Source of the DNA: Microbispora catharanthi
GTDB taxonomy: Bacteria; Actinomycetota; Actinomycetes; Streptosporangiales; Streptosporangiaceae
DNA: 64,000 nucleotides
Reading direction: 5' to 3'
NCBI RefSeq assembly: GCF_006334915.2
Contig: NZ_VDMA02000014.1
Coordinates: 1 to 64,000 of the forward strand
Shown here: positions 2,790 through 42,525 of the stretch, one piece after another
How the letters are laid out: every line of letters begins with the position of its first letter
How positions within the stretch are numbered: the first letter of the stretch is position 1
Program-made: the position numbers and the translations under genes
Notes under the pieces: generated by a model
What the model was told of the DNA's origin: nothing
The model's database searches: none
Seen by the model: the letters and a program-made list of their open reading frames with translations, nothing else

Positions 2790-3106
2790 TCAGCGGGTGA
2801 GGCGTCGCCAGCAGATGATGGCGGCGGCGAGGGTCATGAAGGCCTCGTGGATGTCGTCGCGGATCTCCCAGCGGATGCGTAGGCGGCGGAACCAGTGCAG
2901 CAGCGCGATCGTCTGCTCGATCACCCACCGACGCACGCCGAGGCCGGAGCCGTGCGGGGTGCCCCGGCGGGTGATGACGGGCTTGACCTCTGTGGCCCAG
3001 ACCATGCGGCGGTACTTGTCGTGGTCGTAGCCGCGGTCGGCATACAGCAACTTCGGGGCGTGCAGCTTCGAACCGAAGCCCAGTTCCTGGGGCAGAGGCG
3101 GCCGTG
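2790..3106 (-). pseudogene. IS5-type DDE transposase, 3' remnant
   Basis: The reverse strand encodes APKLLYADRGYDHDKYRR, then HGSGLGVRRWVIEQTIALLH and FRRLRIRWEIRDDIHEAF, the C-terminal catalytic part of IS5-type transposases, with the second Asp (YADRGYD) and the Glu (WVIEQT). The N-terminal half and first Asp are absent. The left end may keep an IS terminus near 2770-2790. It abuts the tail of the small membrane protein gene at 3107, suggesting that insertion or deletion altered that gene's 3' end. About 200 bases to its left (2580-2789) hold no gene I can see. Confidence 0.75.
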
Positions 3107-26165: not shown

Positions 26166-26182
26166 GCCGAAGATTTGGTGAG

Positions 26183-26255
26183 TGCCCCCGGCAGGATTCG
26201 AACCTGCGGCACCCGCTTTAGGAGAGCGGTGCTCTATCCCCTGAGCTACGGAGGC
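26183..26255 (-). tRNA. tRNA-Arg (anticodon CCT)
   Basis: 73 bases on the reverse strand. Acceptor GCCTCCG/CGGGGGC, D-arm with TAGCTCAGGGGATAGAGC, anticodon stem CCGCT/AGCGG around loop CTCCTAA, so the anticodon is CCT reading AGG. T-arm GCAGG-TTCGAAT-CCTGC, discriminator A; the CCA is not encoded. Every stem pairs normally. The 3' end faces the recombinase remnant. Confidence 0.95.
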
Positions 26256-37610: not shown

Positions 37611-37687
37611 GGGGCTATAGCGCAGTCCGGTAGCGCACTTCGTTCGCATCGAAGGGGTCTGGGGTTCAAATCCCCATAGCTCCACCA
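37611..37687 (+). tRNA. tRNA-Ala (anticodon CGC)
   Basis: 77 bases including an encoded CCA. Acceptor GGGGCTA/TAGCTCC (one G-U pair), D-arm stems GCGC/GCGC, anticodon stem CTTCG/CGAAG with loop TTCGCAT, so the anticodon is CGC for GCG codons. T-arm TGGGG-TTCAAAT-CCCCA. The 3' 45 bases are repeated at 42150, showing that an element has entered here and regenerated the tRNA. Confidence 0.95.
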
Positions 37688-37691
37688 CGAC
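37643..37691 (+). repeat. attL: left 49-bp direct repeat in tRNA-Ala
   Basis: The last 45 bases of tRNA-Ala (from the anticodon loop to the CCA) and the four following bases are repeated perfectly at 42150-42198. The repeat starts TTCGCATCGAAGG and ends CACCACGAC; the sequences differ immediately outside. This is the usual target duplication left by a tyrosine integrase using a tRNA 3' half as core site. Confidence 0.9.
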
Positions 37692-37724
37692 AGAGGCCGG
37701 TTCCGCCCAGCGGGACCGGCCTCT
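37692..37724. terminator. Terminator after tRNA-Ala (element side)
   Basis: AGAGGCCGGTTCCGC and GCGGGACCGGCCTCT form a 15-bp stem with one G-U pair and a 3-base loop, starting five bases beyond the tRNA. The element brings its own terminator for the tRNA it restores; the other 3' copy has a different one. Confidence 0.8.
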
Positions 37725-37759
37725 CTGCTTCTCTGAGTGACTAACTGAGTGACTAAGCC

Positions 37760-38152
37760 TCACGGGGAGGCGGCGGCCTCCCAACCGTCGTACTCACCGT
37801 GGTACCGAGCAGCTAGGGCATCGAAGAGGTTGCCCGTCTCCCGTACGAAGTCGGGTGAGACCACCGCGTTTGTTTCACAGGTCACCGGCCAGCTGTCTGG
37901 GTACTCCGGGGAGGGCTTGCCGACCTCAGTACGCAAGCTGTACTCGGCACTGTCGGCATCCTTGGCGATGCTTTGAGCAGCCTCGAGAGTCGGGGCGTAC
38001 AGATAGAAGATCACGTGTCGAGGCTGCTCAAGATCGGCACCGGCCTTGACCAGCTGATTCATCACCATTAGGTCCTTGTGCTTGATCCCAAGCTGGGGTG
38101 ACCGCTCCTCCAGATCGACTTGCTCACGCTTCTTTCTCCGAAACGGCCACAT
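37760..38152 (-). CDS. RraB-domain protein (RNase E inhibitor-like)
   Basis: 130 residues. A short basic start (MWPFRRKKREQVDLEE) is followed by a single RraB-like domain: DLMVMNQLVKAGADLEQPRH, then VIFYLYAPTLEAAQSIAKDA and LFDALAARYHGEYDGWEAA, the hallmark end of the family. RraB proteins bind RNase E and slow mRNA decay in enteric bacteria; in actinobacteria the target is not proved. On an integrated element such a protein could tune host RNA decay, but this is inference. It is the gene nearest attL, on the reverse strand, downstream of the decayed integrase. Confidence 0.75.
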   Translation of the reverse strand: MWPFRRKKREQVDLEERSPQLGIKHKDLMVMNQLVKAGADLEQPRHVIFYLYAPTLEAAQSIAKDADSAEYSLRTEVGKPSPEYPDSWPVTCETNAVVSPDFVRETGNLFDALAARYHGEYDGWEAAASP

Positions 38153-38192
38153 GCGACATCCTTCGTAATCTTGGTCGGCCTGAAGATCTTAT

Positions 38193-38930
38193 TCAGTCGG
38201 AGAAAAGCTGATCCATGGCTTCAGCCCCTTCAAGGAGCACCGGGCGGAGTTGCTTGCGGTAGACGGTCTCGGTGACCTTCGTGTTGCTGTGACCCACCAG
38301 GCGCGAGATGTTCTCGATCGGCACTCCGCTGGCCGACAGCAGCGACACGAAGCTGTGCCGCATCTTCCGGGGCGTCCACTCCTTCTCGTTCAGTCCCGCC
38401 TTCTTTACCACCTTGCGGAAGGCGCGCCGTACGTTATGAGAGTCGAGAGCAGTCCCCACCGCAGAGGCGAAGACGAGGCCATGGTCCTGCCATCGGGCGC
38501 CAGCCGCTTTTGCGCGCGACGGCCTGCCGCTCACGGTGAGCTTTGAGCGCGTCCGCACAGCGCTTCGGCATGGCGAGCGTCCGGCGAGACTTCTCGGTTC
38601 TCGTGTCCCCGCCAGCCCGGACGGACCGCCACACCATGATTGACGGCGGCTCGCCCTCCAAGTCCACATGTGACCAGGTCAACGCGCGCAACTCCTCGGT
38701 CCGGGCGCCGGTCAGGAGTGAAACCACGATGTAGGCGTGCATACTCGTTCCTTCGGCCGCCGCGAGCACCGCTTCGGCTTGGTCGAGCGTGAGCGACTTC
38801 GACGGGCGCCCCTGTCTGCCCTTGGGGATCTCGCACAGCATGACCACGTTGCGCTTGACCTTGTCCCGGGCCTGAGCGCGAGAGACCGCACGGACGAGGA
38901 TCAAGCCGCCTTCGGCGGATTGCCGTGAGA
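38193..38930 (-). pseudogene. Tyrosine recombinase (integrase), frameshifted and truncated
   Basis: The reverse strand reads SLTLDQAEAVLAAAEGTSMH and LLTGARTEELRALTWSHVDL (catalytic Arg I) in one frame to about 38510, then DHGLVFASAVGTALDSHNVR, TPRKMRHSFVSLLSASGVPI (Arg/His region) and LVGHSNTKVTETVYRKQL (His/Trp position and Tyr nucleophile) in another. The frame change falls at an AAAA run (GCAAAAGCGG). The SAM-like N-terminal DNA-binding domain is missing upstream of about 38930. Its position next to attL suits an integrase that used tRNA-Ala. With these faults it should be dead, fixing the element. Confidence 0.85.
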
Positions 38931-38944
38931 AGAGGTCCGGCGGG

Positions 38945-39979
38945 GACTATTCAGGATGCCGGTCGTGCATCACGCGTACGGACCTCCCGTCTACCGCCTC
39001 GTACTCCCGCCGGTTTGGCCACGCCTCGGGCGCCCTCTCTACACCGCTTGTCGGGATGAGATCACTTTAATGTGCAGGGACGGGAGGGAAGGGCGCAAGC
39101 ACAAGAGGGGCGGCGGGCTCGACGATCCAGAGCAGAAGGCGGGCCACCAGGGGGAGGACCCGCCGGGGAAGGAATCGGCAGAGGAGAGGGCTGTTTCCAG
39201 AGCTGTCTTCCAGTGACACCGTGAGGGGGTCGAACGACGGTGGGAGGCACAGCGCAGCCAAGAAGCCATCACGGCCCGCACTCCCGAAGGGGAAAGCACG
39301 CGGACACAGGTTGTGTCTACCGCTGGGCCGCGCGCCCGCCCCGCCGGCGGGCTGCGGCTCTCCGGCCGGTCCCGCCGGCAGGCGGCGCGCACCCTGCGCC
39401 GACAAGCGGCGCGGTGTTCAACCGATGGCGGCAAAGCGGCAATGTGCGAAAAGTGATCTCTCTCCCCAAAAGGTGAACGGGTCGTTGGCCACGAGCGGCA
39501 CCACGACGCCGAAGAACCCGGAGACCACAAGGGCGACGCTGGCAGACGGAAGGAGAGAGGAAGAAGGAGCGGGAAGAGGGGGCGGGGCGGAAGGTGCAGG
39601 AGAAAGGGCCTTGGGGCGCTGCCCCAAACCCCGGGGCCTCCGACTCCGAGAGGGGGCCGCGCAGAGCTGGCGCCGTAGGTGGCTGGGCTGGAAGTCCTGA
39701 TCGCTCGCCCGCCATCGACCCAGGCAGAGCCCAGCAGCCCGGCTCCTCCAGGTCAAGCCCAGCCGTGCCAGCAGGACAACCAGCGCGCGAGGAAGGTCAC
39801 CGGGAGGCAGGTACACGCAAGGCAGGGCTTGACCCTCCGTCCCCGGCCCGCTGTCGTTTCGCGATGGGTCGACGGCAGACGAGAGATCAGGCCAGCGGAT
39901 AATGTGCGGGTCCGCACGAGCGTGGGAGAACCCGGTGGTTCGAATGCGAATTTCGGCGCAGGAGGCCGTCATAGGTCTG
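38945..39979. other. Long non-coding, purine-rich segment of the element
   Basis: I see no convincing gene in this 1 kb; open frames here have no family features. The forward strand is strongly purine-rich at about 39070-39200 and 39530-39605 (runs of A/G such as GGAAGGAGAGAGGAAGAAGG). A hairpin TTGGGGC-GCT-GCCCCAA lies at 39611-39627. It may hold the remains of the element's replication, transfer or excision control region. Confidence 0.5.
39611..39627. repeat. Perfect 7-bp hairpin with 3-base loop
   Basis: TTGGGGC-GCT-GCCCCAA, next to ACCCCGGGGCC. Similar GGGGCGCTGCCCC hairpins are common in actinomycete mobile DNA and phage intergenic regions (from memory). Confidence 0.55.
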
Positions 39980-40282
39980 ATGAGCTTGGCATTCATAGAG
40001 ATCCGCACCGTGAGTTACCGTCGCGATCCGACGCTCCTGGAGTGGATTGACGGCCCGGAGGATTACCACGAGCAGATACGGGTGATCGCCGACATATGCC
40101 ACAACTTGCCCGGAAGTCTTGGATCGCGCAGCAAGCGGCAACGGGAGCGAAGGGCCAGTGAGAGCCTGAGACTCCTTCTGCAAGGAGCAGACGACGCACA
40201 TACTCAATGGGTCCGCACCCGTCTTGACGAGCTCGGATATGACTACCACTCGTTGCTCGGGAAGCCCGATCGAGAGGTCTAA
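39980..40282 (+). CDS. Hypothetical small element protein
   Basis: About 100 residues from ATG 39980, which has AGG four bases before it; the frame is open to 39902 and other starts are possible. Soluble and charged: FIEIRTVSYRRDPTLLEWID, EDYHEQIRVIADICHNLPG, a basic patch (SRSKRQRERRASES) and an end HSLLGKPDREV. No family recognised. The spread of conserved-looking hydrophobic and aromatic positions suggests a real protein, but evidence is limited to frame and context. Confidence 0.45.
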   Translation: MSLAFIEIRTVSYRRDPTLLEWIDGPEDYHEQIRVIADICHNLPGSLGSRSKRQRERRASESLRLLLQGADDAHTQWVRTRLDELGYDYHSLLGKPDREV

Positions 40283-40556
40283 GTTGGGCACTGCCTCCGC
40301 CGAGCGGGGGCACACGCTCTCGGAAAACGCTGTCAAGCGATGGCAGCGAACGGAAGCGCTAACGCAGGTCACCTGTCATGCGAAGCGATTCGCCGCAGGT
40401 AGAGAGCGCGCGGAAATCGAACCCGGCCTACAGATCGACTGGTCCGCATCACCGCGCTCCGCCTACCTTGGATGCGTGACCAACTGCGTGCCCAAACCGG
40501 TGCTCAGCGAGGGGGCCGCGTACAGCAATCCGGCTGGTCATGATAGTCAGGGTGAC

Positions 40557-40997
40557 GTGCATGAGCATGCGGTCATTCTGAATGAGTTGGCGCAGGACAT
40601 TCGTCCGGTGTCGTGGGGTGTCGTCTGGTTCGAGGGGCTAACAGCTGAGGACCAGTTGGTCGTGCTACGCGATCTCGCCTACTACTGCATTCAGGCTGGT
40701 GCCGTCGTCGAGGATGGGCCGGAGAGTGTCCTCTTGGCGGGGATACGGGTCACCCACACTCCGGCGGTGCTGATAACGCGGGGGCGACTGGCTGAGCAAC
40801 TGGCGAAGATCATCAATTTGCCACAGGACGAGCGCGTCAAGGCATTCCGTCTTCTGGTCGCGCTTCTGGCTGTCGCGGACGGGCGCCGACGTGAGCGCTA
40901 CTGCGCAGGCGGATGCAGCCACGCATGGCACCAACTGAGGAACCGGCGCGAAACGGAACGGCCACTGCCCAATCGTAAAAGGGGTGTGGACCCCTGA
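40557..40997 (+). CDS. DUF5958 family protein
   Basis: 146 residues from GTG 40557 (AGGGTGAC just upstream); the open frame extends much further left but without family likeness. The sequence HEHAVILNELAQDIRPVSWG, VVLRDLAYYCIQAGA, THTPAVLITRGRLAEQLAKI and KAFRLLVALLAVADGRRRER matches DUF5958, a small actinobacterial family often in mobile or accessory DNA. It is helical; no function is known. The last 20 residues, after the family's usual CSHAWH end, look added. From 40998 to 41223 I see only a doubtful short frame. Confidence 0.75.
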   Translation: MHEHAVILNELAQDIRPVSWGVVWFEGLTAEDQLVVLRDLAYYCIQAGAVVEDGPESVLLAGIRVTHTPAVLITRGRLAEQLAKIINLPQDERVKAFRLLVALLAVADGRRRERYCAGGCSHAWHQLRNRRETERPLPNRKRGVDP

Positions 40998-41223
40998 GTG
41001 AGATGAACCTGGTCGACCTGGTGCTGTACAGCAACCGCTACAGCAAGGCCGCCTCACACGACCACACACCACCGGCCCGTAACTGCCTCTTCAGTAGGGC
41101 GACGAGCCCACCACGTCATGACTGGCTCCCGTTTGCAACCAGGCAGCAGAGGGACAGGGCCCTACAGAAGTTGGACCGAAGGCCGAGGCAAAATGACGGC
41201 ATAGCGCAGATTAGGACTGCTAG

Positions 41224-41514
41224 CTAGTCGAAGTCACCATCAAATTCATCTCCGTTGCCATAACTGATAGTGATGATATCGACGGCACCAATGGGAAAGC
41301 GGAGGTATACCCATAAGCCCTTACGAGGCGAAACTACTTTGATCGACCGATCAGCAGGATAATCCGCGCTATGCCAGCGTTTTTCCCAAGTCTTCTCGTC
41401 GTCCAGTGTCGAGAGAAGTTCATCGATCAATCCCCGATCGCTTACTGCGGCTCGCTCCCTCCACTCTGTGATCACACGCAGACTTTGTGGAGTGACCCGC
41501 AGCAGCTTCGCCAT
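41224..41514 (-). CDS. Toxin-like small protein of a putative TA pair
   Basis: 96 residues. It starts MAKLLRVTPQSLRVITEWRE and has a beta-rich second half (IKVVSPRKGLWVYLRFPIGA, VDIITISYGNGDEF) with a very acidic end. The size, helix-then-strands layout and place two bases after an equally small partner resemble RelE/ParE-fold or other type II toxins, but no family is recognised and no catalytic residue can be named. It would be translated from the same message as its partner. Confidence 0.5.
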   Translation of the reverse strand: MAKLLRVTPQSLRVITEWRERAAVSDRGLIDELLSTLDDEKTWEKRWHSADYPADRSIKVVSPRKGLWVYLRFPIGAVDIITISYGNGDEFDGDFD

Positions 41515-41516
41515 CG

Positions 41517-41822
41517 TTACTCCTTGAGGATCTTCCGCACCTCGTCTAGGTCGATCAACTCCTCAGGCCGCACCGGCGTTGAGGCGGCGATGCGTAGAGC
41601 CTGCCGATCCTCCGGCTTGAGGTTGACCATCAGCTCAACACTGTCCGCGAATGTGATGAGGTGGTCAACGTTAGATGTTTGTCTGAAGGCGGCTATTGCA
41701 CTGTAGAGGTTACGGAAGACCTCACGGCGCTCCGCGTCACTCAATTCGTCATAGACCATTAATGCGCGAGAGATGTCCAAATCTTCACTCTCGGCACCCA
41801 GAGGGATATTTACATCTGCCAC
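41517..41822 (-). CDS. Antitoxin-like small acidic protein of a putative TA pair
   Basis: 101 residues, acidic and helical: MADVNIPLGAESEDLDISRA, MVYDELSDAERREVFRNLYS, LRIAASTPVRPEELIDLDEV, ending RKILKE. It precedes the toxin-like gene by two bases, the usual antitoxin-first order. No DNA-binding ribbon or helix-turn-helix is evident. The gap between this gene and attR (41823-42149) holds no gene I can support. Confidence 0.5.
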   Translation of the reverse strand: MADVNIPLGAESEDLDISRALMVYDELSDAERREVFRNLYSAIAAFRQTSNVDHLITFADSVELMVNLKPEDRQALRIAASTPVRPEELIDLDEVRKILKE

Positions 41823-42149
41823 ATTGATCTCCCCGTGACGACTAACGGCTCTCGCTCACCATAAGGGGACGCGCTGCATGATCGGGGCGGGACAACCAAA
41901 TTGGCAAGATTCGGCGACCTCCCAGTGCTCCGCTGGCGGAGCCGGTCCAGCCTGGTTCCGCCCGGGCGAAGATCCCTAACCAGTCGTAGCGTCGAGCAAG
42001 GCAAGCCCCCCGATCTCCAGGCACGCGAGGGAAGGTGACTAACTGGGTGACGACCGGCACGAACAACCACGGCCTTACGCGAACGACAATGAACGGTCTT
42101 GGCAGCTCAGGCAGCACCTTCCTCCAGATCGCATCACCCGCGAATTGGC

Positions 42150-42198
42150 TTCGCATCGAAGGGGTCTGGGGTTCAAATCCCCATAGCTCCACCACGAC
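42150..42198 (+). repeat. attR: right 49-bp direct repeat (tRNA-Ala 3' half)
   Basis: A perfect copy of 37643-37691: the anticodon-loop-to-CCA half of tRNA-Ala plus four bases. No tRNA 5' half precedes it, so it is not a gene. It sets the right edge of a 4.5-kb integrated element. Confidence 0.9.
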
Positions 42199-42200
42199 GA

Positions 42201-42234
42201 AGGCCCGTCAGGTGATCCACCTGGCGGGCCTTTT
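42201..42234 (+). terminator. Rho-independent terminator, original tRNA-Ala terminator
   Basis: AGGCCCGTCAGGTG and CACCTGGCGGGCCT form a 14-bp stem with one G-U pair and a 3-base loop, followed by TTTT. It lies just after attR, so before insertion it would have ended the tRNA transcript. Confidence 0.85.
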
Positions 42235-42525
42235 CGCTGCTCGGGAGCCGGATGCCACCTGCGGCTAGCGCTCTGTCAACGCCCCTGAAGGTGAGTGGGA
42301 AGCCTGGTTTCCCGCGCCTTGGTCGGCCGGCGCCGGCTGGAGGCCGAGGAGAGCAGGGCCGCGGTCGGCGGCTGTCTCCCGTGGAGTCACGTGGAGGAGA
42401 CGCGGAGGAACCCTTGGTGTTCCACAGGAGATGCGGGCAGGGCCTTGACGCTCCGTGGAGATTGAGGGGTCGCCTCTTTCCCGGCCCTTTCCGCCCCATG
42501 TGGTCCACTGGCCGGAGGGGACAGG

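What the first reader, a model, noticed from the sequence alone, without database searches (positions are those of the whole stretch)
37643..42198. 4.5-kb element fixed in tRNA-Ala(CGC) by a dead integrase
Perfect 49-bp direct repeats of the tRNA 3' half bracket a segment with a frameshifted, truncated tyrosine integrase, an RraB-domain protein, a DUF5958 protein, an unknown protein and a TA-like pair. The tRNA is intact only because the element regenerated its 3' half. So small an element without its own replication genes is either a decayed integrative element or a satellite.
Basis: seen in the sequence. Interest (0 to 1): 0.7.

Follow-up and report, generated by a model that had tools for sequence, protein, structure and literature searches.

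The report
Stranded remnant of a bacterial hitchhiker
In a soil actinomycete, a 4.5-kb leftover of a self-transferring DNA element sits in a tRNA gene: it has lost its genes for moving and copying but keeps DNA sites that moving would use, and a conserved hairpin that may be an unrecognised working part of this family of elements.

Summary

A ~200-nt non-coding hairpin (39693-39893) also survives: it shows compensatory changes, has no Rfam match, and lay near AICE genes in 17 of 20 chosen loci against 1 of 20 controls. It was opposite in strand to the replication gene in 26 of 26 loci, and occurs in plasmid pMR2 where no gene is listed. I propose a single-strand origin or transfer site, untested. 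Only 3 of 9 att-bounded units keep both arms and hairpin, so plain decay is likelier than a maintained satellite.

The parts
37611..37687 (+). tRNA-Ala(CGC), target gene; its 3' half is now the element's copy (inferred)
   Evidence: ARAGORN; Rfam tRNA
37643..37691 (+). left att core (49 bp), from the first base of the anticodon loop to 4 bases past the tRNA
37692..37725 (+). element-type hairpin and T-rich terminator-like sequence behind the tRNA (type A), shared with 7 of 20 relatives
37737..37753 (+). left arm-type repeat GTGACTAACTGAGTGAC, 94 nt from the core start
37760..38152 (-). RraB-domain protein (130 aa), cargo between att and int; 83% identical relative beside an att-like site and an int fragment in Streptosporangium minutum
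   Evidence: pairwise dN/dS 0.16
38193..38904 (-). tyrosine integrase remnant: residue 142 to C-terminus of a 377-residue relative, frame change near residue 273
38905..39109 (.). probable deletion scar (inferred) where full relatives carry int N-terminus, xis-like gene, RepSA and tra; a piece (38931-39060) is 86% identical to G036
39110..39330 (.). conserved non-coding block E, 87% to Microbispora corallina element L088, where it lies next to a rep gene lacking about 97 N-terminal residues
39693..39893 (.). block A: conserved ~200-nt imperfect hairpin found with AICE genes (proposed single-strand origin or transfer site)
39944..40282 (+). unknown protein (112 aa, FIEIR and CHNLPG motifs), cargo
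   Evidence: low-confidence model, no fold match (86, 90)
40306..40447 (.). conserved non-coding block B
40563..40997 (+). DUF5958 protein (144 aa), cargo
   Evidence: relatives
41020..41146 (.). conserved non-coding block C
41224..41514 (-). second gene of a two-gene pair (96 aa, unknown)
41517..41822 (-). first gene of the pair (101 aa, unknown)
42035..42051 (+). right arm-type repeat GTGACTAACTGGGTGAC, 115 nt before the distal core
   Evidence: same offset in L048, L082, L109, L110
42150..42198 (+). distal att core, the original host tRNA 3' half (inferred)
42199..42245 (+). host-side terminator-like sequence (type B), as behind the tRNA in G007

Best explanation
[not shown]
Against: Excision and mobilisation were not tested. 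No ancestor with the same cargo plus full machinery was found. Three of nine att-bounded units keep both arms and the hairpin, which a maintained satellite would also show.
Confidence: 0.86

Rival explanations
1. A non-autonomous AICE satellite: a maintained lineage of 3-4.5-kb elements that keep the cis sites (att arms, hairpin) and are excised, replicated and transferred by full AICEs.
For: Window, L110 (Microtetraspora fusca, 4,228 bp) and L109 (Planotetraspora, 2,896 bp) share tRNA, arms and hairpin; only int pieces (and in L110 a weak GntR piece) of the AICE proteins searched were found. L110 also has blocks B and C in the same order. The genome holds five other full-length hairpin matches, each with AICE-type genes nearby, so replication or transfer helpers may exist. 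RraB looks constrained (dN/dS 0.16 against one relative).
Against: The int pieces start at different residues (142, 167, 218), so the truncations look independent. Only 3 of 9 units keep both arms and hairpin. L109 and L110 were found through their int remnant, a biased sample. No close second integrase was found in this genome. Element DNA is not clearly more similar between genera than host DNA (about 80-88% against about 80-85%).
Confidence: 0.1
2. Not an element but a local tandem duplication or recombination scar of the tRNA 3' half that trapped foreign genes.
For: In G013 both copies are followed by the same terminator, as a duplication would give.
Against: In the window the two copies have different terminators; integrase remnant, paired arm sites at fixed offsets and an empty site in G007.
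Confidence: 0.02
3. Phage satellite or prophage remnant.
Against: No DNA match in 50,697 phage records. Five cargo proteins against PHROGs gave one weak hit only (20 residues of RraB, E 0.007, unknown function). The fuller relative carries RepSA and FtsK-type genes.
Confidence: 0.02

Closest known systems
AICE (actinomycete integrative and conjugative element, pSAM2 type)
   Different: No xis, rep, tra, GntR or NUDIX gene found in the unit; integrase broken
CIME (cis-mobilizable element; definition seen in PMC5704250)
   Same: Lost integration and transfer genes, kept attL and attR
   Different: Derived from an AICE; no functional element found in tandem here; mobilisation untested
AICE remnants and DAICEs at Streptomyces sites (PMC9513070, passages seen)
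   Same: Partial integrase, cargo and two direct repeats; empty sites in relatives; accretion at a tRNA
   Different: That paper's DAICEs keep traB; ours has none, matching its smaller unnamed remnants; another family and tRNA
Plasmid pMR2 of Micromonospora rosaria (NC_006910)
   Same: Carries the same kind of hairpin (2867-3022, 79.6% identity over 92% of a hairpin from genome G520), opposite in strand to its annotated replication initiator
   Different: Has annotated integrase, excisionase, replication and FtsK genes

Membership tests
AICE | site-specific integration at a tRNA with att direct repeats | tested here: met
AICE | functional integrase and excisionase | tested here: not met
   int from residue 142 with a frame change; no xis hit
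AICE | replication initiator gene | tested here: not met
   no rep hit in the unit
AICE | FtsK/TraB-type transfer gene | tested here: not met
   no tra hit in the unit
CIME | lost integration and transfer genes | tested here: met
CIME | retained attL and attR | tested here: met
CIME | can be mobilised in cis by an incoming element | not testable with these tools
   needs an excision or mating assay
DAICE as defined in PMC9513070 | traB kept, int and/or rep missing | tested here: not met
   no tra in the unit; definition seen
Phage satellite | phage-type genes or phage relatives | tested here: not met
   (cargo proteins only)
Single-strand origin (block A) | folds as a large hairpin, fixed strand relative to rep | tested here: met
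   opposite strand to rep in 26 of 26 loci with a rep hit
Single-strand origin (block A) | acts on one strand only | tested here: inconclusive
   wobble-pair counts 15 against 10 on pairs predicted on both strands
Single-strand origin (block A) | directs second-strand synthesis; loss gives ssDNA accumulation | not testable with these tools
   needs a plasmid assay

The most novel reading that the evidence does not exclude
Block A is an undescribed, widespread cis element of actinomycete conjugative elements: a 155-200-nt hairpin acting as a single strand (second-strand origin or TraB loading site). Small units such as this one are AICE satellites that persist by keeping it together with the attP arms.
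Probability: 0.12. Interest if true: 0.7.

Novelty: new member of a known kind. Interest (0 to 1): 0.4.

Why it matters
The 4.5-kb unit is an ordinary remnant, useful as a clean example of AICE decay outside Streptomyces. The hairpin it led to may matter more. [quoted passage not shown] A conserved hairpin found next to AICE genes in more than one family gives a concrete, deletable candidate for a missing replication or transfer site, and a marker for decayed AICEs that gene searches miss.

Tried and rejected
Rejected: phage satellite; defence cargo (one hit in five proteins, E 0.052); toxin-antitoxin by fold (AF2 of the 96-aa protein from two sequences, pLDDT 49, not used for a fold search); fold of the 112-aa protein (pLDDT 64, best Foldseek E 1.4). 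A strand preference of block A from wobble pairs looked large at first (G-U 200 against C-A 13 on the rep-sense strand). It shrank to 15 against 10 on the 41 pairs predicted on both strands, so I treat it as unproven. That strand does fold better in 28 of 28 sequences with RNA and 27 of 28 with DNA parameters. clt against sso could not be separated. Loci with rep but no tra hit in the fetched stretch carry A (L197, L204), and so do loci with tra and no rep hit (L203, L207). Against universality: of 59 loci searched with the model, 23 had a match at E 0.01 or better and 36 had none. The 36 include L081 and L087, which have integrases (and L087 a rep-like gene); some loci may be cut before the hairpin. 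The 13-kb G005 unit, with int and a tra-like match, also has none by BLAST. Function of blocks B and C: not found. pSAM2 itself (AJ005260) is not in the collections, so the hairpin was not checked there; a likeness of our arm repeats to pSAM2's is recalled only.

Rows dropped: searches left out loci that are the window's own DNA; one search did not print protein-level integrase rows; alignment A1 used 28 of the 31 sequences listed (L165, L169, L085 left out). The 20 loci were picked by me, favouring finished genomes. L194 and L207 among them contain the sources of some query proteins, but also match queries from elsewhere. L189 and L190 are near-identical copies in one genome.

Full report
OBSERVATION. 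The repeat is 49 exact bases, 4,507 apart, and begins at the anticodon loop of tRNA-Ala(CGC). A 33-base part of the core has no third copy in the assembly within 3 mismatches. GC is 0.62 inside and 0.72 in nearby flanks.

HOST. Fifteen genomes of the genus are held, own included.

EMPTY SITE AND DIRECTION. In 20 relatives fetched around the same tRNA, the sequence right after the tRNA falls into types. Type A (as behind the intact tRNA here) is in 7 of 20: G012, G001, G003, G004, G008, G014, G036. Type B (as behind the distal copy here) is in 6 of 20: G010, G006, G013, G009, G007, G002. Two of 20 (G011, G005) have a third type and five have further kinds. G007 is the cleanest empty site: tRNA and type B terminator, then 233 nt (224 in the window) to where the downstream host DNA aligns again (97 of 100 bases equal across the tRNA end). 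So the distal copy is most simply the old host end, and the element supplied the present tRNA 3' half with a new terminator. Five of 20 relatives have at least one further core copy (G013, G009, G005, G029, G019), so this tRNA is an integration hotspot.

ARM SITES. GTGACTAACTGAGTGAC lies 94 nt after the left core start and, with one mismatch, 115 nt before the distal core. Allowing 4 mismatches, the left offset is 94-95 in 13 of the 37 sequences scanned, window included; two of the 13 are second fetches of the same genomes (L079 = L031, L150 = L048). It is 105 in L080 and L082 and 113 in L084. The right offset is 115 in the window, L048 (and its repeat L150), L082, L109 and L110, and 125 in L084. 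Both attP arms of the dead unit therefore look whole. That these repeats bind the integrase is inferred from their paired, fixed positions.

OTHER SMALL UNITS. Of 9 att-bounded segments compared, 3 keep both arms and block A (window; L109 Planotetraspora, 2,896 bp; L110 Microtetraspora fusca, 4,228 bp). G013 keeps A without arms, G029 and G019a keep one arm, and G009, G019b and the 13-kb G005 unit keep none at up to 3 mismatches. The int pieces of the first three start at residues 142, 218 and 167, so the deletions look independent. L109 and L110 were found through their int remnant, a biased sample.

BLOCK A. A search of 341 family genomes with window 38905-42149 gave matches in 200 of 341; that figure mixes A, B, C, E and the cargo genes. 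Many listed rows are the same non-coding ~190 nt. Twenty-eight sequences align. RNAalifold gives 44 pairs on the plus strand, 11 with changes on both sides, and 63 pairs, 17 with such changes, on the minus strand. Single-sequence z-scores are -3.2 and -6.0 as RNA on plus and minus and -5.6 as DNA on minus. Rfam has no match there at E up to 5. A covariance model found it in 28 of 296 genomes of the class and 9 of 114 genera, under filters that lose weak matches, including two families other than that of the window. That one of these is Streptomyces is inferred, where 21 of 23 plasmid records matching such a hairpin are Streptomyces.

BLOCK A AND AICE GENES. I chose 20 A loci and fetched about 10 kb on each side. 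Of these, 17 of 20 have int, xis, rep, tra, GntR, NUDIX or a linked small gene at E 1e-6 or better, against 1 of 20 control stretches elsewhere on the same contigs. L199, L201 and L205 had none. In L189, L190, L193 and L263 A lies just behind the NUDIX gene (query families). In this genome the other five full-length A matches (C20, C29, C33, C44, C66) each have AICE-type genes nearby. Of 27 loci listed for the strand test, 26 had a rep hit and A is on the opposite strand in 26 of 26. L082 and L194 are the same element; the 27th, pMR2, had no tblastn hit but its annotated replication initiator is also opposite. pMR2 carries A where PLSDB lists no gene; that gene table is incomplete by its own description. 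Against universality: 36 of 59 loci searched with the model had no match.

MECHANISM. In the cell the unit should be inert: no close integrase (next best 36% over the C-terminus), passive copying with the chromosome, cargo possibly expressed. RraB, the 112-aa protein and DUF5958 show pairwise dN/dS of 0.10 to 0.57 against relatives, which speaks for working genes in those lineages rather than for the unit itself; the two-gene pair had no relative among the loci. Re-mobilisation by a cognate AICE is inferred.

LITERATURE. PMC9513070 (passages) describes Streptomyces sites with only a partial integrase, cargo and two direct repeats, and accretion; [quoted passage not shown] PMC5704250 (passages) defines CIME. 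PMC3218068 (passages) surveys AICEs and mentions remnants. PMC3583192 (passages) and PMC4170104 (passages) describe dso, sso and clt in Streptomyces plasmids. PMC4595007 (search listing and start of abstract only) reports a single-strand origin in ICEBs1. My searches touching sso or clt in AICEs listed no title or abstract start that describes this hairpin. They cover open-licence papers only and I read passages of few, so I do not claim that it is unpublished.

Noticed in passing
window 39693-39893; also L274:2871-3024 (pMR2) and many loci: Conserved 155-200-nt hairpin found with AICE genes, with no Rfam match; candidate single-strand origin or transfer site.
   Followed up: partly
window 40306-40447 and 41020-41146: Two further conserved non-coding blocks (B, C) that follow block A in the same order and strand in several genomes, with different genes in between, as if cargo were swapped between fixed spacers.
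   Followed up: partly
[not shown]
   Followed up: partly
L084 (Streptosporangium minutum) 1669-2294: Same terminator, RraB gene and an int fragment beside an att-like site, 82% DNA identity, suggesting an old att-RraB-int arrangement shared between genera.
   Followed up: partly
G000 contigs C20, C29, C33, C44, C66 (L254-L258): Five other AICE-like regions in the host genome, each with a hairpin match.
   Followed up: partly
L088 and L163: Two Microbispora elements share a rep gene lacking its N-terminus that lies next to block E, beside the same non-coding stretch as in the window.
   Followed up: no
window 26182-26255: A second tRNA gene, tRNA-Arg(CCT), in the window; its surroundings were not examined for integrated elements.
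   Followed up: no
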